Shown piece by piece: positions 3,130 to 11,171 of a stretch of 11,171 bases of DNA; the first letter of the stretch is position 1, and every line of letters begins with the position of its first letter. This stretch comes from Chloroflexota bacterium. Its GTDB lineage: Bacteria > Chloroflexota > Dehalococcoidia > JACQGW01. The stretch is from assembly GCA_016199325.1 (NCBI GenBank), contig JACQGW010000319.1, positions 1 to 11,171 on the forward strand. The letters are read 5' to 3'. The position numbers and the translations under genes are program-made. The notes under the pieces are model-generated. The model did not search any database. It was not told the DNA's origin and worked only from the letters and a program-made list of their open reading frames with translations.

Positions 3130-3178
3130 GCGGTGCAGCCGTCAAGTCGACGACTGATTGGCCCGCCCGTGCATTGTG

Positions 3179-3253
3179 ATGCTGAGCCGCCGCGAAGCAT
3201 CTCCTGGACGGTGCCGGCCCAGGACGCGGAGATGCTTCGCGGCGGCTCAGCAT
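3179..3253. repeat. Perfect 26-bp inverted repeat around a 23-base loop (dispersed palindromic repeat)
   Basis: The left arm 3179-3204 begins ATGCTGAGCCGCCGCG and ends AAGCATCTCC. The right arm 3228-3253 is its exact reverse complement, and three further pairs form outside one mismatch (TGT at 3175-3177 with ACA at 3255-3257). Each arm also contains a short inner palindrome-like pair (ATGCT...AGCAT). The style resembles the GCTGAGC..GCGAAGC repeats seen in many copies in Chloroflexota and other environmental genomes; they produce spurious peptides such as MLSRREASP and CFAAAQHD when translated. It follows the dehydrogenase stop by 50 bases and precedes the pilus promoter. There is no T-tract after it, so a role as an intrinsic terminator is unsupported, although the RNA would fold strongly on either strand. 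Confidence 0.85.
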
Positions 3254-3335
3254 GACAGACGGGGAGCCGTCAGCATCACGAGTGGATCTGCCGGATGCAC
3301 CATCGAGTGTATCGCCCGAAGCCCGAAAAGGGCAC

Positions 3336-3397: not shown

Positions 3398-4135
3398 GTG
3401 AAACGAATCAATCTGCTGCTGGTTGGGCTTGGGCTGATTCTCGCGATCTCGAGCGGCGGCCTGGCGATGGTTTTCCTCCAGGGTGCCGCTCAGCAAACCG
3501 ACGTCGCGCCGTCCGCTTCTTCGCACGTGCTGGTTGCCACCAAGGACATCCCGGAATTCGCCATCGTGACGGCCGAGCGGATCTCGGCGCGTGAGCTGAC
3601 GACGGCCAGGCCGCCGAGGGGGGCGCTCGGCGTGCCGGAGGAGGCGATTGGCCGGATTGCGCTCACCCGCATCCGGGCGGGTGAAGTGCTCCTCGGCAGC
3701 AAGCTCGGCGAGCCGGGCGCGTCGTCGGCGGCGGCCGCCATGCCGGCACCGGCCGCGAACGAGGCCCAGCGCGTGCTCTACGCGCTGCCGGCCACCGACC
3801 TGCTCGCGCAGTCGGGTGCGCTCGGTCGAGGCGACCGGGTGGACGTACTGGTCTCGGCGGGTCGCGAGCCGGTCACCCAGGTCCTCATCAAGGATCTCCT
3901 CGTGCTTGGCGTGGGGCGCTGGGGCGCGAGCGGCGAGATCCGAGAGCAGCTCGGCTCGATGCCCGTCGTCTACCTGCTCGTCACGCCGCAGGAAGCGCTG
4001 GTCCTCAAACACGTGCGGGACACCGGAGGTAGCCTCGACCTCGTGCTGCGGGCTGTGCGTGACAATCGCGACACGCCCACGGAGCCGGTGGACAAGCAGT
4101 ATCTCTTCAGCCAGTTCGGCGTCGGATCGCCGTAG
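3398..4135 (+). CDS. cpaB: Flp pilus assembly protein CpaB/RcpC
   Basis: 245 residues. One N-terminal membrane anchor (6-27, LLLVGLGLILAISSGGLAMVF) is followed by an SAF-like domain (about 43-103, from VLVATKDIPEFAIVTAERIS to IRAGEVLLGSKL), a low-complexity Ala/Pro linker (108-120) and the RcpC domain (about 127-222: ALPATDLLAQSGALGRGDRVDVLV, VLIKDLLVLGVG, VTPQEALVLKHVRDTGGSLDLVLR). The order and length match CpaB/RcpC, a periplasmic, inner-membrane-anchored protein thought to link the Tad secretin to the inner-membrane platform. The GTG start has only a weak ribosome site (GAAG at 3381-3384) but is preceded by a good promoter. The stop lies six bases before tadB. The usual neighbours cpaC, tadZ and cpaF/tadA are absent between this gene and tadB. 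Confidence 0.88.
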   Translation: MKRINLLLVGLGLILAISSGGLAMVFLQGAAQQTDVAPSASSHVLVATKDIPEFAIVTAERISARELTTARPPRGALGVPEEAIGRIALTRIRAGEVLLGSKLGEPGASSAAAAMPAPAANEAQRVLYALPATDLLAQSGALGRGDRVDVLVSAGREPVTQVLIKDLLVLGVGRWGASGEIREQLGSMPVVYLLVTPQEALVLKHVRDTGGSLDLVLRAVRDNRDTPTEPVDKQYLFSQFGVGSP

Positions 4136-4141
4136 CCGCCT

Positions 4142-5128
4142 GTGGACTCCTCGATCGTCGGGATCATCCTTGCCTTTGGCGTCGGCCTTGGCGTCGCGCT
4201 CGCCTTCTGGGGGGTGACCAGCGCGTTCGTCTCGCCTGGCGCGATCGATCGCCGGCTCGCCGAGCTGGCCGTGCCCTCTGCTCCGGTGCAGTCCAGCGCG
4301 CCGGCGCTGGCAGATCCCAGCGTTGTGCTGCGGATGGTGCAGTTCACCGGTGGCCTGCTGACCCGCTGGCTCCGAGACGTGGGCGCCGGGGAACGGATCG
4401 CCCGGGATCTGCTCCAGGCGGACCTGCGTATGAGCGTCGGCGAATTCGTCATCGCCGAGGTGGCCGCGGCGGCGGGTGGGCTGGTGCTGGCGCTGCTGGT
4501 GCGCGGGGACGCGGTCTCCATGATCGCCTGCGCCACCATCGGCTGGGCGATCCCCGGTATCTACGTGCGCCGCCGCCGCAATGCCCGCATCGACGCGATG
4601 GTCCGCCAGCTCGGCCATACCATCTCGGTGATCGCCAACGCGCTGCGCGCCGGCAGCAGTCTGCTCCAGGCGTTTCAGATGATCTCGCGCGAGATGCCGG
4701 ACCCGACCGCCACCGAGTTCGGCCGGGTCGTCCGTGAGGTCGGCCTCGGGCTCACGTTCGAGCAGGCGCTCTGGAACATGCTCAAACGGGTGCCGGGGTA
4801 CGAGCTCGAGCTCGTCGTCATTGCCATCACCATCCAGTACGGCATCGGCGGCAATCTGGCACCGGTGCTCGACAACATCTCCGACACGATCCGGGAGCGC
4901 GTCCGCATTCGCGGCGACGTCAAAGCGCTGACAGCGCAGCAGACGTACTCGGGCTATCTGCTGGCGTTCCTGCCGGTCGGACTGATCGGCATTCTGTACA
5001 TGATGAGTCCCGACTACATTGGCGTCCTCTTCCAGCCGGGGCCGGCGATGATCTTGCTCTTCGGCGCGATCCTGTCGATCGCCATCGGCTTCATGGTCAT
5101 TCAGCGCATTACGCGGATTGCGGTCTGA
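4142..5128 (+). CDS. tadB: Tad inner-membrane platform protein TadB (type II secretion F-domain)
   Basis: 328 residues from GTG 4142, six bases after the cpaB stop with no clear ribosome site, so it probably depends on coupling. Hydrophobic segments at about 5-25, 103-120, 122-141, 271-287 and 302-320. The T2SSF domain spans about 157-285, with the helix-rich LGHTISVIANALRAGSSLLQAF (157-178), FEQALWNMLKRVPGYELELV (206-225) and GGNLAPVLDNISDTIRERV (236-254). TadB and TadC form the inner-membrane platform that works with the TadA ATPase to assemble Flp pili. The stop codon overlaps the tadC start (TGATG, 5126-5130). An arginine cluster (YVRRRRNAR, 141-149) follows the third segment. Assignment to TadB rather than TadC rests on gene order and the long N-terminal region. 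Confidence 0.87.
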   Translation: MDSSIVGIILAFGVGLGVALAFWGVTSAFVSPGAIDRRLAELAVPSAPVQSSAPALADPSVVLRMVQFTGGLLTRWLRDVGAGERIARDLLQADLRMSVGEFVIAEVAAAAGGLVLALLVRGDAVSMIACATIGWAIPGIYVRRRRNARIDAMVRQLGHTISVIANALRAGSSLLQAFQMISREMPDPTATEFGRVVREVGLGLTFEQALWNMLKRVPGYELELVVIAITIQYGIGGNLAPVLDNISDTIRERVRIRGDVKALTAQQTYSGYLLAFLPVGLIGILYMMSPDYIGVLFQPGPAMILLFGAILSIAIGFMVIQRITRIAV

Positions 5129-6042
5129 TGCTGATTCCCGCTATCGGACTCCTGCTCGGCCTGGGCGTCTTCTTCATCACGCTCGGCGTGGTCGCTTCGC
5201 TGCGTTCGTCACAGGCCGACCGGAGGCTGGCGGAGCTGTCGCTGGCGCCGGAAGTGAACGCCCTCGACGTTCAAGCCCTGGATCGTCCGTTCGCCGAGCG
5301 GGTGATCTTGCCGGCCATCCGCCGCCTGACGGCGACCGTGTTGCGGAGCACACCCGAGCGCAGCCTCGACAGTATCCGCTTCCGCCTCATCCAGGCCGGG
5401 GCGCCGCAGGGCCTGGACGCGCAGACGTTCCTCGGGCTCAAGCTCGCCTTCGCGGTGCTCGGCGGCCTCGTCATCCTCGCCTTCACCGGACCGCTCATCG
5501 GCCTGTTGACGGCGGTCGTGTTCGGCATCGGGGTCGCCGCCTTCGGCTACGTCGCGCCGGATCTCTGGCTGAGCCAGCAGGTTGCCGCGCGCCAGGCGGC
5601 GATCCGGGCGGCACTGCCTGACGCCCTCGACATGCTAACCATCTGCGCCGAGGCCGGCCTCTTCTTCGACGCGGCGATGACCCGGCTGGTCGCCCGCTGG
5701 GACAATGCGCTGACGCAGGAGTTCCGGCAGGTGCTCGCCGAGATCGCCATCGGCCATGCTCGCCACGACGCGCTCCGCCACCTTTCTGAGCGGACCGGCG
5801 TTGAGGATCTGTCGACGTTCGTCACGCTGCTGATCCAGGCCGAGCTCATGGGGTCGGGAATTGTCAACGTGCTGCGGACCCAGTCGGCCTTCCTCCGGAT
5901 GCAGACGCGCCAGCGGGCCGAGCGACTCGCCCGCGAGGCGGGGATCAAGATGCTGATCCCGCTGGTGATCTTCATCTTCCCGCCCATCTTCATCGTGCTG
6001 ATGGGCCCCGCGCTGATCACGGCGCTGCCGTCGCTTCGATGA
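5128..6042 (+). CDS. tadC: Tad inner-membrane platform protein TadC (type II secretion F-domain)
   Basis: 304 residues; ATG 5128 shares its A with the tadB TGA, indicating translational coupling. Membrane segments at about 1-22, 104-122, 124-143 and 274-294. The T2SSF domain (about 163-290) has the TadC-typical LPDALDMLTICAEAGLFFDAA (163-183) and the C-terminal block KMLIPLVIFIFPPIFIVLMGPA (274-295). The N-terminal helix followed by ADRRLAELSLAP (30-41) mirrors TadB (IDRRLAELAVP), consistent with the two being ancient paralogues. It partners TadB in the pilus platform. The TGA stop at 6040-6042 overlaps the ATG of the tadE frame (ATGA, 6039-6042). The repeat array begins three bases after the stop, so the TadC C-terminus is untouched. 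Confidence 0.88.
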   Translation: MLIPAIGLLLGLGVFFITLGVVASLRSSQADRRLAELSLAPEVNALDVQALDRPFAERVILPAIRRLTATVLRSTPERSLDSIRFRLIQAGAPQGLDAQTFLGLKLAFAVLGGLVILAFTGPLIGLLTAVVFGIGVAAFGYVAPDLWLSQQVAARQAAIRAALPDALDMLTICAEAGLFFDAAMTRLVARWDNALTQEFRQVLAEIAIGHARHDALRHLSERTGVEDLSTFVTLLIQAELMGSGIVNVLRTQSAFLRMQTRQRAERLAREAGIKMLIPLVIFIFPPIFIVLMGPALITALPSLR

Positions 6043-6683
6043 CGAGTCGGCAGTCGGCAGTCGGCAGTCGGCAGTCGGCGATCCGGGGTCGGCAGTCGGC
6101 AGTCGGCAGTCGGCAGTCCTGTCTCCGGAGCCGGGCATCTGGACCCCGCACCCCGGACCGCGAACTGCCGACCGCCGACCGCGAACTGCCACCCCCCGCT
6201 TTCCGACCCCCGATCGTGGGCTGCCCACTGCCTGCCGACCGCCGCCCACGGACTGCCGACTGCCGACTGCCGACTGCCGACTCGCCGGGCCAGGGCCTGG
6301 TGGAGTTTGCGCTGGTGCTGCCGGTCCTCCTGCTCGTCGTGTTCGGCATCGCCCAGTGGGCCATCATCATGAACGCGCTGGCGACGGTAAACCACGCTGC
6401 GCAGATGGGCGCCAGGACCGGCGCGGCAATCGGCGCCAACCTGGATCGCACCAACAGCGGCGACGCCGACACCGACGTCCGCAATGCGGCCAAAGCGGAA
6501 CGCGGCGTCCTGAATCTCGCCGACGGAGACATTATGATCGAGCCGGCCGTCGGGTTGCGAGCGGCCGGCTCGATCATGACTGTCACGGTCACCTACGGCC
6601 AGTCGATCTTCCTGCCCGCGGTCTCCGATCTGGTGGGCGGCGTCTACACCGTGACGGGGCGCTCGGCGGTGCGCGTCGAGTGA
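6039..6683 (+). CDS. tadE: TadE-like pseudopilin with a repeat-encoded leader
   Basis: 214 residues from ATG 6039. Residues 85-110 (QGLVEFALVLPVLLLVVFGI and on) are the hallmark TadE/TadG N-terminal segment, with Glu89 at +5 after Gly84, the prepilin-peptidase cleavage geometry. The rest (NALATVNHAAQMGARTGA, then VTVTYGQSIFLPAVSDL and VYTVTGRSAVRVE) is also TadE-like. TadE is a minor pseudopilin needed for Flp pilus assembly. The oddity is residues 3-81: they are encoded by a heptanucleotide array and read SRQSAVG and CRLPTAD repeats, so the leader is about 84 residues instead of the usual 10-30. Other in-frame starts are a GTG at 6216 without a ribosome site and a GTG at 6300 that would delete the cleavage site, so 6039, coupled to tadC, is the best choice. 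The last 40 bases overlap the convergent methyltransferase gene. Confidence 0.78.
   Translation: MTSRQSAVGSRQSAIRGRQSAVGSRQSCLRSRASGPRTPDRELPTADRELPPPAFRPPIVGCPLPADRRPRTADCRLPTADSPGQGLVEFALVLPVLLLVVFGIAQWAIIMNALATVNHAAQMGARTGAAIGANLDRTNSGDADTDVRNAAKAERGVLNLADGDIMIEPAVGLRAAGSIMTVTVTYGQSIFLPAVSDLVGGVYTVTGRSAVRVE
6045..6282. repeat. Heptanucleotide repeat array with internal strand switch
   Basis: The left part is AGTCGGC units: five perfect copies (6045-6079), one degenerate, GGTCGGC, three perfect copies (6094-6114) and a partial one. The middle (6122-6233) is made of degenerate heptamers such as ACCCCGG, ACCGCGA and ACTGCCG that keep the same 7-base phase as the left part: 27 units from 6045 to 6233. 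The right end has four perfect GACTGCC units (6251-6278) plus GACT after a small phase slip. GACTGCC is a permutation of the reverse complement of the left unit, so the array switches strand near the palindrome CTCCGGAG at 6123-6130, and the ends can pair as a long hairpin. The unit contains no stop codon in any of six frames. Confidence 0.9.
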
Positions 6684-8194
6684 CCCAGGCCGACGAGATG
6701 CCGCGGCCAGTCCTCGCGCTCTTCCATCTCCGCCTCGGCCTGCCGGATCCACTCATGGTAGAGCTGGACGACCTCCGGCTTGATCGGCATCTCCGGCTCC
6801 TGGTACGACGCCAGCAGCCGCTTCCACTCCTCGGTCGCCCGCTCAGCCGCGCTCTTCGACCCCCGCTTCACCCACTCGGCGTAGATCTGGCGGTCCATCA
6901 GCTTCGGCTGGAAGTAGGCGGTCTTGAAGTGCTTGTAGGTATGATCCGTCGTCAGGAACATCCCCTGTGGTCCCACCTCGTGGATGACGTCCACCGCCAG
7001 CTCTTCGTCGGTGATCGGGGGCGGCTGCATGAGCCGCTGGATCATCCCCATCAGGTCCTGGTCCAGCACGAGCTGCTCATATGAGCTGGTGAGCAGCGAC
7101 TCCAGCACCCCGGTGGCCGACGGCAGCGTGTTGGAGCCGGAGAGGACGGCGACGAGCGCCGTCAGCGCATGCTCGAACCCCGCCTGGACGTCCGGGATCT
7201 TCGATTCGCTCGCACCGCCGCACCCGGCAGACGGCACGCCGTAGCGCCGGGCCAGCATGCAGACCATGTTGGTCGCCAGCGCCATGTCCGGGCTCCCGTA
7301 CGGCGGCAGCCCCACCTTCATGTCGCATTGCACTGCCCAGGTAGTGTAGCTGACCGGCAGTCCGGGGCGGATGGACTGGACCAGCACGAGCGGGCCGAGG
7401 AACTCGGCGTTCGTGACGACCATCATCCCGGCAAAGGTCATCGGCGCCGTCATGCCGCCCAGAATGGCCGACCCGATGCCACACGGCTGGCCGGCCTTCG
7501 CCGTGTTGATGAACGACATCGCCATCCGCTGGTCCAGCATGAGCGGACTGACGGGCTGGGCACCGCCCCGAGACACCGGCCTGGCGACGTAGTCCCAATC
7601 CGAGCCGAAGATGACGGCGACCGCCTCTTTGAACTCGGCCACGGGGTCCCGGTCCAGCTCGCCGGCCTGGGGCGCCAGGCGGGGCAGGCCGTTGACCCGA
7701 TCCGTGTACGTCGCGTCCACGAGCGGGCGGACGTAGGGGCGCAACGGCACCGGCACATCCTCGATGGTCCCTGTGAGGCCGCCGGCGGGGTCCACGATCG
7801 GGAGTTGGTGGACAATCTTGACCAGCTCGATGGCGTCGGCGAGTTTGTTGAGGCGCCGGCCACGCTCCAGGTCGTTGATGATGACCCGGCCTACCGACGG
7901 CGTGAGGTAGATGTTGTCGCCGCCGTGGGTCCGGTTGTACTTCGGATTACGGGCGTAGACCGTGTAGGACGCTGGGCACAGGGCGAGCGCGCGCTCGACA
8001 GCCGAACGATCGATCCACACCCGCTGCCGGTCGCGGTCGACCTTCGTGCCGGGTGTCGCCTCGTAGATGTCGAGGGCCTCCTCGCACAGCACGGCAAAGC
8101 CCGTCTCTTCCAGAACCCCGAGGCTCGCCTGGTGGATTTTCTCGACGTCTTCCCGCGTGAACAGCTCGAGCTTGGGGTGACGGTTGACGATCAT
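6644..8194 (-). CDS. MttB-family (trimethylamine methyltransferase family) corrinoid-dependent methyltransferase, no pyrrolysine
   Basis: 516 residues from ATG 8194, matching the MTTB family (about 470-520). N-terminal helix-rich region LFTREDVEKIHQASLGVLEETG (11-32), strand block RVWIDRSAVERALALCP (58-74), then the TIM-barrel core with PCGIGSAILGGMTAPMTFAG (237-256), NAEFLGPLVLVQ (262-273), YGSPDMALATNMVCMLARRYGVP (299-321) and CGGASESKIPDVQAGFEHAL (325-344). The last segment is where, as I recall, true MttB carries pyrrolysine; here the frame has no internal amber codon and an ordinary residue (about Ala328). Non-pyrrolysine members such as MtgB pass a methyl group from glycine betaine, carnitine or similar amines to a corrinoid protein; the substrate here is unknown and no corrinoid protein gene is nearby. 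A near-copy lies at 10136-11171. The frame is open further upstream to 8314, but that stretch is repeat and promoter. Confidence 0.88.
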   Translation of the reverse strand: MIVNRHPKLELFTREDVEKIHQASLGVLEETGFAVLCEEALDIYEATPGTKVDRDRQRVWIDRSAVERALALCPASYTVYARNPKYNRTHGGDNIYLTPSVGRVIINDLERGRRLNKLADAIELVKIVHQLPIVDPAGGLTGTIEDVPVPLRPYVRPLVDATYTDRVNGLPRLAPQAGELDRDPVAEFKEAVAVIFGSDWDYVARPVSRGGAQPVSPLMLDQRMAMSFINTAKAGQPCGIGSAILGGMTAPMTFAGMMVVTNAEFLGPLVLVQSIRPGLPVSYTTWAVQCDMKVGLPPYGSPDMALATNMVCMLARRYGVPSAGCGGASESKIPDVQAGFEHALTALVAVLSGSNTLPSATGVLESLLTSSYEQLVLDQDLMGMIQRLMQPPPITDEELAVDVIHEVGPQGMFLTTDHTYKHFKTAYFQPKLMDRQIYAEWVKRGSKSAAERATEEWKRLLASYQEPEMPIKPEVVQLYHEWIRQAEAEMEEREDWPRHLVGLGHSTRTAERPVTV

Positions 8195-8197
8195 GTG

Positions 8198-8205
8198 CTC
8201 CTCCC
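8198..8205 (-). promoter_or_regulatory. Ribosome binding site that sets the methyltransferase start at 8194
   Basis: Read on the minus strand, GGGAGGAG precedes ATG 8194 by three bases. The open frame continues 40 codons upstream to 8314, but those codons cover the heptamer repeats and the predicted promoter and give a non-family N-terminus, so 8194 is the real start. Confidence 0.75.
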
Positions 8206-8212
8206 TTTTCGG

Positions 8213-8268
8213 TATCGGGTCTGTGATTCCTAGTCTGTGGTCCCTGGTCCGCGGTCTCTGGTTTTTCC
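8213..8268. repeat. Short degenerate heptamer array in the methyltransferase leader
   Basis: From 8213 the plus strand divides into eight in-phase heptamers: TATCGGG, TCTGTGA, TTCCTAG, TCTGTGG, TCCCTGG, TCCGCGG, TCTCTGG, TTTTTCC, with a rough consensus TCYSTGG. Its period and degenerate style match the middle of the array at 6045-6282, where units such as TCTCCGG and CATCTGG occur. It lies between the predicted promoter and the ribosome site of the methyltransferase, so it would be transcribed as 5' leader. Confidence 0.6.
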
Positions 8269-8298
8269 TTACAATGAACCGGCCGACCGTCCACCGCA

Positions 8299-8327
8299 AG
8301 TATACCGGAAGCACCTTCGGGCGTCCA
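8299..8327 (-). promoter_or_regulatory. Putative sigma70-like promoter of the methyltransferase gene
   Basis: On the minus strand TGGACG (8327-8322) and TATACT (8304-8299) are 17 bases apart. The -10 is five of six to consensus and the -35 four of six. Transcription would begin near 8292 and give a leader of about 100 bases that carries the degenerate heptamers and the strong ribosome site. Confidence 0.5.
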
Positions 8328-8430: not shown

Positions 8431-9642
8431 CTATCCAGCGGGGTTCTTGCCAGCGGGGTTCTTGGCGATGGACTCGACTACCTCTGCGATGCGCTCGATA
8501 TCCGACTCCCTGTTCCACACGCCAACGGAGAGGCGGATGCCCTGAGGCCTGGTCAGGACGATAGTCCTGCCAAAGATGAAGTGCTCACGAAGCCGCGCAA
8601 CCGCGCTGGCCGGGTCGGCGCCATGGACCGCAAAGGTGATGAGCCCGCTCTGACCGGGCTGGGAGATCATCTGCACGTTCCCGATGGCGTCGAGGCTGTA
8701 CCACAGCTGGTTGTACAAGGTCCCGAGACGCTCGTACACGAACGTCCAGCCCACGCTCTCGGCGAACCACTTGAGGGCAGCGGTCCCACCCATGATGACG
8801 GGGATGGGCCGAGTGCTCACCTCGTAGCGCTGGGCGGTGTCCATCAGGTCCAGCCTGCCGCTCATGCCGTGCCGGGCATCGGTGAAGACACCGGAGTAGG
8901 TGGGCAGGACTCGCGGGAACACCCCCTTACGGATGTACAGCGCGCCAGCACCATCGGGGCCGCAGAGGAACTTGTGGCGCGCGATGGCGTAGCCATCGAC
9001 CTCCATCTCCTTCACGTCGACGGGATAGGTGCCTACGGTCTGGATGCCGTCGGCAAGGACCAGGATATCCCGCTCATGGGCCAGCCGGCTGATACCCTTC
9101 AGGTCTGCGCGGCCGCCGGTGGCAAAGGTGGCGTCAGAGAACAGGACCATCCTGGTCCTGGGGGAGAGCACCTTGCGTACCGCCTCCACGGAGTCCTTCT
9201 CGCCGTTGCCGAGGTCGGCGATCCTCAGGGTCAGCTTTCGCCGCTGGGCGATGACCATGAGCGGCACGCTGGCGGCGGGGTTCTCAAGGCTTCCGGCGAT
9301 GATTTCGTCGCCAGGCTCGAAATCGTAGCCCCAGAGGAAGACGTTCATGGCCGTAGAGGACGAGTCGGTGAGGGCCACCTCATCAGGGGAGCAGTTGAGG
9401 AGCCGGGCGACCTCCTCCTTGGCCTCGTCAATGGGCCCCGAATAGCGAGCAAGTCCCATATAGCCGCCACGCATCCCGTCCGGGTCGTCGCCCCTGGCCA
9501 GGGCCTCTTGCTCGTAGCCCTTGGCAATGGCCTCGCGGGCAGCGCGAGACAGCGGCCCCCAGGAGCCGGCGTTGATGGCGATGGCGTGGTCCGGCAGGTT
9601 CAGTTCCCTCCGAATATAGGCGACCTGCTTTTCCGTGGTCAT
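8431..9642 (-). CDS. Class V PLP-dependent aminotransferase (cysteine desulfurase / isopenicillin N epimerase-like)
   Basis: 403 residues from ATG 9642, with GGAGG at 9650-9654 six bases upstream. Fold-type I PLP enzyme: cofactor phosphate loop around TDSSSTAMN (92-100), ring-stacking region at 117-121, FATGGRADL (173-181), PLP-ring Asp198 and Gln201 in VLADGIQTVGTYPVDV, Schiff-base Lys224 in ARHKFLCGPDGAGALYIRKG, and the carboxylate-binding Arg370 in GIRLSVGVWN. The family includes cysteine desulfurases, isopenicillin N epimerase-like and serine-glyoxylate or phosphoserine-type enzymes. The small insert in the region of the desulfurase active-site loop (TYSGVFTDARHGMSGRLD) shows no obvious catalytic Cys, so desulfurase activity is not supported. 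The product is cytoplasmic. It sits between two near-identical mttB-family genes on the same strand, with gaps of about 236 bases downstream and 260 bases upstream of it. The C-terminus carries a duplicated KNPAG. Confidence 0.88.
   Translation of the reverse strand: MTTEKQVAYIRRELNLPDHAIAINAGSWGPLSRAAREAIAKGYEQEALARGDDPDGMRGGYMGLARYSGPIDEAKEEVARLLNCSPDEVALTDSSSTAMNVFLWGYDFEPGDEIIAGSLENPAASVPLMVIAQRRKLTLRIADLGNGEKDSVEAVRKVLSPRTRMVLFSDATFATGGRADLKGISRLAHERDILVLADGIQTVGTYPVDVKEMEVDGYAIARHKFLCGPDGAGALYIRKGVFPRVLPTYSGVFTDARHGMSGRLDLMDTAQRYEVSTRPIPVIMGGTAALKWFAESVGWTFVYERLGTLYNQLWYSLDAIGNVQMISQPGQSGLITFAVHGADPASAVARLREHFIFGRTIVLTRPQGIRLSVGVWNRESDIERIAEVVESIAKNPAGKNPAG
8435..8464. repeat. 15-bp perfect tandem duplication at the 3' end of the aminotransferase gene
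   Basis: CCAGCGGGGTTCTTG occurs at 8435-8449 and again at 8450-8464 with no gap. On the minus strand it encodes KNPAG twice, so the duplication keeps frame and adds five residues immediately before the TAG stop. Confidence 0.9.
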
Positions 9643-9902: not shown

Positions 9903-10136
9903 TCACGCCCAGTCCAGCGTGTAGCGGTGCGGCGTGACGGAGAGCGCCCAACCGACGAGCTTCGGCGGGATGTGGACGCGTCCGTCGGCCTCGACGCGTG
10001 CCCCGCCGCGCCGAAACGTCTCCCGCGCCTCCGCGCCCTCCACCTGGACGCCGGTGCGCTCCAGCACCTGGGGCGCACCCGCATGGAGCCGGTCCAGCTT
10101 CGCCGGCTGGGGTGTGATCAGAAGCCGAGTATCCAT
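9903..10136 (-). pseudogene. N-terminal remnant of a further mttB-family gene
   Basis: 77 codons from ATG 10136 to TGA 9905-9903. The peptide matches the first 80 residues of the complete methyltransferase in layout: LITPQPAKLDRLHAGAPQVLERTGVQV against LFTREDVEKIHQASLGVLEETGFAV, then GARVEADGRVHIPPKLVGWAL and PHRYTLDW. It ends exactly where the TIM barrel should begin, so it cannot be an active methyltransferase. The ATG shares its A with the stop of the preceding methyltransferase gene (TGATG on the minus strand), so it could still be translated by coupling. It is either a decayed third mttB copy or a free-standing N-terminal domain. Homology was judged by eye. Confidence 0.65.
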
Positions 10137-11171
10137 CACCGCACCGCTGCCACTGGCTCCAACCCGATGAGATGGCGCGGCCAGTCCTCGCGCTCCTCCA
10201 TCTCGGCTTCCGTCCGTCGGATCCATTCCTTATAGAGGGCGACGACCTCCGGCTTCACCGCCATCTCCGGCTCCCGGTACGCCGCCAGCAGCCGCTGCCA
10301 CTCCTCCGTCGCCCGCTCCGCCGCGGTCTTCGCGCCCTTCTTCGCCCACTCGGCGTAAATCTGGCGGTCCATCAGCTTCGGCTCGAAGTACGCGGACTTG
10401 AAGTGCTTGAAGGTGTGCTCGTGGGTCAGGAACATCCCCTGGGGGCCGACCTCGTGGATGACGTCTACCGCCAGCTCTTCGCCGGTGATGGCGGGCGGGT
10501 TGACGAGCCGTCGGATCATCCCGTACAGGTCCTGGTCGAGGACCACCTGCTCGTACGACGCGGTGAGGAGCGATTCCAGAACGCCCGACGCCGACGGAAT
10601 CGAGCTCGCGCCGGAGAGCACCGCGACGAGCGCCGTCAGGGCATGCTCGAAGCCCGCCTGGACATCCGGGACCTTCGATTCGGTGGCGCCGCCGCACGGG
10701 GCGCAGGGCACGCCGTAGCGCCGGGCCAGCATGCACGCCATGTTCGCCGCCAGCGCCATGTCCGGGCTCCCGTACACCGGCAGCCCCACCTTCATGTCGC
10801 AGGCGACGGCCCAGGTATCGTAGATGACGGGCAGGCCGGGGTGGATCGCCTGGACCAGCACCAGCGGACCCAGGAACTCCGCGTTCGTGACGACCATCAT
10901 CCCGGCGAAGGTCATCGGCGCCGTCATCCCGCCCAGGATGGCCGACCCGATCCCGCAGGGCTGGCCCACCTTCGCGGTGTTGACGAAGGACATCCCCATC
11001 CGCTCGTCCAGCATCAGAGGGCTCACGGGCTGGGCGCCGCCCCGGCCCACCGGCTTGGCGACGTAGTCCCAGTCCGAGCCGAACATCGCGGCCACCGCCT
11101 CCTTCCACTCGGCGACGGGGTCCCGGTTGAGCTCGCCGGCCTGGGGCCCCAGGCGGGGCAGGCCGTTGACC
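10136..11171 (-). CDS. Second MttB-family methyltransferase (C-terminal two thirds, cut by window edge)
   Basis: The open frame runs off the right edge (first full codon at 11170) and ends at TGA 10138-10136, giving 345 C-terminal residues of an expected ~510. It aligns without gaps to residues 168-502 of the complete paralogue at 6644-8194, and I estimate at least 80% identity by eye. All core blocks are shared: FGSDWDYVA, PCGIGSAILGGMTAPMTFAG, NAEFLGPLVLVQ, YGSPDMALAANMACMLARRY, CGGATESKVPDVQAGFEHAL, DVIHEVGPQGMFLT and EREDWPRHL. The C-terminal tail differs (GLEPVAAVR here). No internal amber codon is present, so it also lacks pyrrolysine. An apparent start at 11095 is an internal Met. Same reaction class as the paralogue; substrate unknown. 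Confidence 0.9.
   Translation of the reverse strand, partial: VNGLPRLGPQAGELNRDPVAEWKEAVAAMFGSDWDYVAKPVGRGGAQPVSPLMLDERMGMSFVNTAKVGQPCGIGSAILGGMTAPMTFAGMMVVTNAEFLGPLVLVQAIHPGLPVIYDTWAVACDMKVGLPVYGSPDMALAANMACMLARRYGVPCAPCGGATESKVPDVQAGFEHALTALVAVLSGASSIPSASGVLESLLTASYEQVVLDQDLYGMIRRLVNPPAITGEELAVDVIHEVGPQGMFLTHEHTFKHFKSAYFEPKLMDRQIYAEWAKKGAKTAAERATEEWQRLLAAYREPEMAVKPEVVALYKEWIRRTEAEMEEREDWPRHLIGLEPVAAVR

What the first reader, a model, noticed from the sequence alone, without database searches (positions are those of the whole stretch)
6039..6290. Heptamer array translated as the leader of a TadE pseudopilin
The tadE frame opens in the tadC stop codon (ATGA) and stays open through about 238 bp of 7-bp repeats until the cleavage site SPG|QGLVEF (Gly84, Glu at +5). 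The repeat-encoded residues therefore lie where a prepilin peptidase would cut them off, so an otherwise harmful insertion may be tolerated or may even modulate leader length. Removing 6045-6281 (79 codons) would join ATG-ACG to TCG-CCG-GGC and leave a short leader MTSPG before QGLVEF, which suggests a clean in-frame gain of the array.
Basis: partly seen in the sequence, partly recalled or inferred. Interest (0 to 1): 0.72.

Follow-up and report, generated by a model that had tools for sequence, protein, structure and literature searches.

The report
Seven-base repeats spelling a pilin leader
A known kind of bacterial seven-base repeat array sits between two pilus genes and runs up to the pilin's predicted cleavage site, so the part of the pilin that is later cut off appears to be spelled by repeats; similar arrays turn up inside ordinary enzymes of a related bacterium, so the case is not special to pilins.

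Summary
A heptamer array (6045-6287) fills the tadC-tadE junction, the ATG6039 frame is open through it, and Pfam TadE starts at the predicted cleavage Gly84. Openness is no evidence of coding: all six frames are open, because a perfect heptamer array reads the same seven codons in every frame. The array is two arms facing each other (AGTCGGC at tadC, CTGCCGA at tadE) around a degenerate middle. In samples of two Chloroflexota genomes, dispersed heptamer arrays tend to the same gene-edge polarity, and arrays lying close together mostly face each other. No ATG, GTG or TTG lies between array and cleavage site, so any TadE with a leader translates repeat DNA: 84 residues from ATG6039, or 25 from GTG6216, the public prediction. 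Cleavage is not needed to explain tolerance: in one of these genomes arrays are read in frame at enzyme N-termini and inside conserved enzymes. No array-free allele, close relative or reads were available, so 'clean in-frame gain' and leader-length modulation are unproven. Most likely a passive, frame-neutral repeat element reached the first constrained codon of tadE.

The parts
3398..4135 (+). cpaB/rcpC-like gene of the tad operon
   Evidence: Pfam RcpC and SAF
4142..5128 (+). tadB-like (T2SSF) gene
   Evidence: Pfam T2SSF; also matched by the TadC profile
5128..6042 (+). tadC (T2SSF); its stop overlaps the tadE ATG
   Evidence: Pfam T2SSF and DUF5936; best listed public relatives up to 48% identical
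6039..6683 (+). tadE, longest ORF (214 aa); 84-residue leader if ATG6039 is used
   Evidence: Pfam TadE at residues 84-126
6216..6683 (+). tadE as in the public protein set (155 aa, GTG start, 25-residue leader)
   Evidence: P0001
6045..6118 (+). left arm: AGTCGGC heptamer array, G-rich on the + strand (G 32, C 21)
6119..6231 (.). degenerate heptamer middle (lag-7 identity 0.56 against 0.34 at lag 6 and 0.29 at lag 8)
6232..6287 (-). right arm: heptamer array, CTGCCGA on the + strand, C-rich there (G 16, C 27), ending next to the cleavage motif
6043..6284 (.). inverted repeat: 53-nt outer arms, 89% complementary, 136 nt apart
   Evidence: fold z -11.2
6288..6305 (+). predicted prepilin-peptidase motif: Gly84 (6288-6290), then QGLVE with Glu at +5 (6303-6305)
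   Evidence: match start at 6288

Best explanation
The feature is a member of a dispersed class of heptamer arrays that mostly lie between genes or at gene edges, with polarity tending to follow the nearest gene edge and, in part of the cases, two arms facing each other. Here it fills the tadC-tadE junction and has reached tadE's first constrained codons, next to the Gly at the predicted cleavage site (shown). Because a perfect heptamer array reads the same seven codons in any frame, and this unit has no stop on either strand, the array is frame-neutral; only its total length decides the frame downstream (shown). No ATG, GTG or TTG lies between the array and the motif, so a leader-bearing TadE must begin inside or before the array and carry a repeat-encoded leader (follows from the sequence). 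Translation probably starts at ATG6039 by coupling to tadC's stop, as tadB and tadC also overlap, with GTG6216 a serious alternative (inferred, roughly 55:40). Prepilin peptidase would then discard the leader (inferred). The array persists because this stretch is unconstrained, not because it serves the pilus (inferred).
For: All six frames open, and the in-frame start list; same seven codons in every frame. Inverted arms. An exact 21-mer of the unit occurs in 4 of 400 sampled genomes of the phylum, with 77 overlapping matches in G263 and 9 in G181. Period 7 is the commonest period from 4 to 12 among perfect tandem arrays: 50 in 0.8 Mb of G263, 81 in 0.485 Mb of G181. Polarity follows the nearest gene edge in 44 of 53 (G263, p 1.4e-6) and 38 of 50 (G181, p 5e-4) scored arrays; arrays less than 250 bp apart face each other in 11 of 11 and 15 of 23 pairs. 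The window arms fit. In G181 arrays are in frame between two domains of two molybdopterin enzymes, inside a Maf domain, and at the N-termini of PrmC-like and Cys/Met PLP enzymes. Published analogues: PMC4692102, PMC4679880.
Against: The window's own genome is not held, so dispersal there is inferred from genomes of uncertain kinship, chosen because they carry the unit. Genes in G263 and G181 were called with a crude home-made caller. The polarity rule has exceptions (9 of 53 and 12 of 50); in regions with a single scored array it is weaker, 24 of 32 and 23 of 32. Facing pairs are a minority layout: 11 of 43 array-bearing regions of G263 hold two arrays, and in 8 of 11 G263 pairs the arms share no inverted 9-mer, unlike the window. 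Neither tadE start has a Shine-Dalgarno-like sequence (by eye). An 84-residue leader exceeds the 4-42 seen in 60 homologues and the nearest-start range of 3-43 in 40 genomic TadE matches.
Confidence: 0.72

Rival explanations
1. One reading: the array was gained in frame inside tadE and is kept because the leader is cut off, perhaps tuning leader length.
For: The array ends next to the cleavage Gly; predicted leader lengths vary from 4 to 42 in 60 homologues; two reviews describe leaders of variable length (PMC10191384 and PMC4471445, passages).
Against: Arrays are also read in frame in enzymes without cleaved pilin leaders; openness is automatic; a search with the array-encoded part found no homologue at E 0.001 (weak evidence).
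Confidence: 0.12
2. TadE starts only at GTG6216; most of the array is an untranslated spacer and only its last part (24 codons before the Gly) forms the leader. This is a variant of the best explanation, not exclusive of it.
For: The public prediction starts there; a 25-residue leader fits the 4-42 of 60 homologues and the 6-26 given for studied pilins (PMC4471445, passage).
Against: No Shine-Dalgarno-like sequence (by eye) and a strongly folded region, whereas ATG6039 overlaps tadC's stop. A gene caller's choice is not evidence of use.
Confidence: 0.4
3. The array silences tadE: the hairpin blocks coupling and the gene is decaying.
For: Hairpin z -11.2.
Against: The rest of the tadE frame is intact, with a TadE match well above the gathering score.
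Confidence: 0.08
4. Assembly artefact: two contigs were joined at a dispersed array, or the copy number is wrong.
For: Dispersed repeats are typical misjoin points (general knowledge); the database shows this TadE from one contig only, of 11,171 bases.
Against: The join falls between tadC and tadE, functional neighbours; perfect repeat runs are about 35 bp at most and the middle is degenerate.
Confidence: 0.06

Closest known systems
GGGAATC / GGGGA(C/T)T heptamer repeats of Xanthomonas and Nostoc (PMC4692102; passages and two sections read)
   Same: Dispersed heptamer arrays, mostly non-coding, with the G-rich strand starting close to an ORF edge whatever the gene's direction; the paper also mentions inverted repeats.
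   Different: A G4-forming unit there; here the unit has no GGG tract, and the two related genomes mix many units. The polarity holds in arrays without three GGG tracts (25 of 30 and 37 of 48).
TAACTGA direct repeats of Beggiatoaceae (PMC4679880; abstract, passages and one section read)
   Same: Dispersed heptamers; some lie in ORFs, mostly at protein ends.
   Different: Different unit, with stops in all forward frames, mostly sited just upstream of starts; one indirect repeat reported; no pilin leader in the parts read.
Heptanucleotide repeats of cyanobacteria such as Calothrix (a passage of PMC4692102; the name STRR is recalled and also in the listing of PMC5088731)
   Same: Short tandem heptamers in a bacterial genome.
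   Different: Other units and hosts; not compared here.
Borg tandem repeats in proteins (PMC9879509, search listing only)
   Same: Tandem repeats that add protein segments.
   Different: Borg elements of archaea; unit lengths were not read.
TadE pseudopilins (PF07811)
   Same: Cleavage motif, hydrophobic segment, tad operon neighbours.
   Different: The leader is repeat-encoded and, from ATG6039, longer than in the 60 homologues measured.

Membership tests
TadE pseudopilin | PF07811 match above the gathering score | tested here: met
   49.3 bits against 22.9
TadE pseudopilin | Gly at -1, Glu at +5, hydrophobic stretch | tested here: met
   SPG|QGLVEFALVLPVLLLVVFG
TadE pseudopilin | tad operon neighbours | tested here: met
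   CpaB-, TadB- and TadC-like genes upstream
TadE pseudopilin | cleavage by a prepilin peptidase of the same cell | not testable with these tools
   genome not held
dispersed heptamer arrays with ORF-edge polarity | tandem 7-bp unit | tested here: met
dispersed heptamer arrays with ORF-edge polarity | many copies in the same genome | not testable with these tools
   own genome not held; met in G263 and G181
dispersed heptamer arrays with ORF-edge polarity | G-rich strand starts at the nearest gene edge | tested here: met
   left arm G-rich beside tadC, right arm C-rich beside tadE
dispersed heptamer arrays with ORF-edge polarity | repeat unit with a G tract able to form G4 (Xanthomonas/Nostoc kind) | tested here: not met
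   unit AGTCGGC has no GGG; the arms hold one GGG run and one CCC run. Against this, 6150-6287 (middle plus right arm) holds five CCC runs, so a G4 on the minus strand of the middle is not excluded
[quoted passage not shown]
   unit is AGTCGGC
MITE | terminal inverted repeats | tested here: met
MITE | target-site duplication | tested here: inconclusive
   none seen by eye; edges are ambiguous

The most novel reading that the evidence does not exclude
Heptamer arrays in Chloroflexota, often as facing pairs, are a frame-neutral element class that repeatedly writes new protein segments (leaders, tails, linkers, loop insertions) into genes, whatever the frame; a pilin leader built wholly from such an element is one case, and the gene-edge polarity does not depend on G-quadruplexes.
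Probability: 0.3. Interest if true: 0.65.

Novelty: new variant of a known kind. Interest (0 to 1): 0.4.

Why it matters
It shows in one gene how a short-repeat array can supply coding sequence without breaking the frame, and it offers a test of why heptamers are so common among bacterial tandem repeats: 7 is coprime to 3, so a stop-free unit is harmless in every frame. The gene-edge polarity, seen here in arrays without G tracts, argues that G-quadruplex formation is not its general cause.

Tried and rejected
Junction comparison: a TadC-profile scan kept the best 80 of 557 genome loci. A motif search found TadE after tadC in 0 of 80, a profile search in 1 of 80 (L078, about 2.5 kb past tadC); 10 of the 80 end less than 1 kb after tadC. 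A TadE search of 61 genomes (G263 and relatives) matched 20 of them, not G263 itself. A first pass read one strand only of its 20 loci; both strands gave 40 TadE matches in 20 of 20 loci, nearest start codon 3-43 residues before the motif (39 of 40 at most 22), with no TadC in these loci.

Search for other repeat-encoded leaders: none at E 0.001 among 433 candidates; weak evidence, since low-complexity peptides score poorly.

Taxonomy: the aminotransferase matched 150 of 151 genomes of the phylum, best listed rows at most 38% identical. The MttB search used too strict a cut-off (1e-120; 0 of 400) and says nothing. The lineage stays unplaced. Chloroflexota is inferred from the TadC hits, most of whose record titles name Chloroflexota lineages. 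'Phylum' is that of G001 (locus L042, Thermalbibacter) and includes G006 (L039, Chloroflexus); I call it Chloroflexota from recall of GTDB, while NCBI files Thermalbibacter under Thermomicrobiota.

The 21-mer control (pattern read backwards) hit 8 of 400 genomes, more than the 4 of the pattern itself; that string is itself a heptamer array, so the exact unit is not special. The pattern was absent from 14 of 14 genomes tried first.

G-quadruplex as general cause of the polarity: not supported, since arrays without three GGG tracts obey the rule. No standard gene caller was found in the box.

Paper searches. None of their listings showed a paper on heptamer arrays in Chloroflexota (named the group and returned nothing); most papers of subscription journals are not covered.

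Full report
What is there. The window carries a tad operon segment: cpaB-like, tadB-like, tadC and tadE. Between tadC's stop (6042) and the TadE cleavage motif lies a heptamer array. The left arm is 6045-6118 (AGTCGGC, 10.6 copies), the right arm 6232-6287 (CTGCCGA, 7.9 copies). The middle keeps weaker 7-base periodicity (0.56 against 0.34 at lag 6 and 0.29 at lag 8). The arms are inverted to each other (53 nt, 89% complementary), and the RNA would fold far better than shuffles (-178.7 against a mean of -122.4 kcal/mol, z -11.2).

Openness means little. All six frames are free of stops across the array. A perfect heptamer array reads the same seven codons cyclically in any frame, because 7 and 3 share no factor. 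AGTCGGC gives SRQSAVG and its complement gives ADCRLPT, neither with a stop. So given such an array here, the frame must be open, and an ATG at the tadC stop would be in frame with the TadE core one time in three by length alone (own arithmetic).

The leader must still be repeat-encoded. In-frame ATG/GTG/TTG codons up to the motif are ATG6039, GTG6216 and GTG6300. The last lies inside the motif and would remove the cleavage site. A leader-bearing TadE is thus read from repeat DNA: 84 residues (15 R+K, 7 D+E) or 25 residues (4 R+K, 3 D+E). The public protein set uses GTG6216 (P0001). Leaders of 60 homologues are 4-42 residues by their predicted starts; of 63 proteins I set aside P0001 itself, one where the motif search hit the wrong place and one without a motif hit. 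In 40 genomic TadE matches the nearest start codon lies 3-43 residues before the motif. A review gives 6-26 for studied pilins (PMC4471445, passage). Neither tadE start has a Shine-Dalgarno-like sequence, nor do cpaB, tadB and tadC, while the cocE-like and aminotransferase genes do (by eye). tadC starts on tadB's stop, so coupling at ATGA suits the operon (inference).

The same kind of array elsewhere. The exact 21-mer occurs in 4 of 400 sampled genomes of the phylum (77 overlapping matches in G263, 9 in G181, 1 each in G301 and G025); the backwards control, itself a heptamer array, occurs in 8. I took G263 and G181 further because they carry the unit. In the first 0.8 Mb of one G263 contig, perfect tandem arrays of at least three copies number 50 for period 7, 17 for period 8, 10 for period 4 and 0-1 for each other period from 5 to 12; one base shuffle gave 0 for period 7. 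In 0.485 Mb of G181 (its first 60 contigs, up to 20 kb of each) they number 81 for period 7 and at most 12 for any other. A looser detector gives 61 and 92 arrays. In G263, 38 of 61 are intergenic, 17 overlap a gene edge and 6 lie inside a called gene.

Polarity and pairing. An array near the left gene tends to be G-rich on the top strand, one near the right gene C-rich, whatever the gene directions: 44 of 53 scored arrays in G263 (8 of 61 dropped) and 38 of 50 in G181 (42 of 92 dropped). Among regions with a single array it is 24 of 32 in G263 and 23 of 32 in G181 (7 of 39 not scored there; p 0.007 and 0.02). Adjacent arrays less than 250 bp apart face each other in 11 of 11 pairs (G263) and 15 of 23 (G181: 3 GG and 5 CG against); a further 11 G181 segments hold both arms in the facing order and 0 the reverse. 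Facing pairs are not the majority layout: two arrays lie in 11 of 43 array-bearing regions of G263 and 10 of 49 of G181. In 8 of the 11 G263 pairs the arms share no 9-mer in inverted orientation, so identical units as in the window are the minority there. Arrays without three GGG tracts obey the rule in 25 of 30 and 37 of 48; those with them in 19 of 23 and 1 of 2. The window arms follow the rule. The published Xanthomonas/Nostoc repeats show the same polarity (PMC4692102, section read). The window's middle and right arm hold five CCC runs, so a G4 there is not excluded.

Arrays read as protein. Overlaps of at least 21 bp between arrays and called genes number 33 in G181 (15 C-terminal, 10 N-terminal, 8 internal; 29 genes) and 7 in G263 (3, 3, 1; 7 genes). 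I gave Pfam 17 of these 36 genes. The clearest are a 758-aa and an 823-aa molybdopterin enzyme, each a single ORF with arrays at the junction of MoCoBD_1 and MoCoBD_2 (both MoCoBD_2 matches start at profile position 21), and a Maf-like protein with an array at residues 120-137 inside the Maf match (16-207). At N-termini, the PrmC-like (L248) and Cys/Met PLP (L238) ORFs have no ATG, GTG or TTG between the array and the domain. In the other N-terminal G181 cases looked at, a start codon after the array exists, so translation of the array is not forced (L212, L197, L194:2821-4368, L231:679-1497, L235, L236, L237). L237 gave no Pfam match and L231:1534-2808 only one below its cut-off. In G263, EamA and molybdopterin oxidoreductase ORFs end in array-encoded tails beyond the Pfam match. 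Tolerance therefore does not depend on cleavage.

What follows. The best-supported view is a passive, frame-neutral repeat element at the junction, reaching the first constrained codons. How such arrays arise or spread, and why their polarity follows gene edges, was not resolved. The Beggiatoaceae paper already notes repeat-encoded residues mostly at protein ends (PMC4679880, section 15), and the Xanthomonas paper mentions inverted repeats, so the kind is known. The mixed units in one genome, the polarity without G tracts and the arrays inside conserved enzymes are parts I did not see in the passages read.

Limits. Genes were called with a home-made hexamer method, so class counts are approximate.

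Noticed in passing
window 3175-3257: Near-perfect palindrome (30-nt arms, 97% complementary, 23 nt apart) between the 3-hydroxyisobutyrate-dehydrogenase-like gene and cpaB; looks like another dispersed intergenic repeat.
   Followed up: no
window 8435-8464: Perfect 15-bp tandem duplication (two copies) at the 3' end of the class-V aminotransferase gene, giving NPAGKNPAG at the C-terminus.
   Followed up: no
window 6644-8314 and 10136-11170 (- strand): Two MttB-family trimethylamine methyltransferase-like genes flank an aminotransferase gene; they share a 300-bp stretch at 85% identity. The first overlaps the 3' end of tadE tail to tail by 40 bp.
   Followed up: partly
L244:1205-3481 and L234:468-2939 (genome G181): Two related molybdopterin enzymes carry in-frame heptamer arrays at the same place between MoCoBD_1 and MoCoBD_2: an old shared insertion or repeated gain.
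   Followed up: partly
L203:12609-14465 (genome G181): One ORF joins a PAP2 domain and a glycosyltransferase through an array, a possible repeat-made gene fusion.
   Followed up: partly
L001-L012 (IMG/VR contigs): The same 21-mer occurs in 12 stretches of contigs filed as viral; L007 holds several arrays of different units. Host flanks or misfiled contigs are possible.
   Followed up: partly
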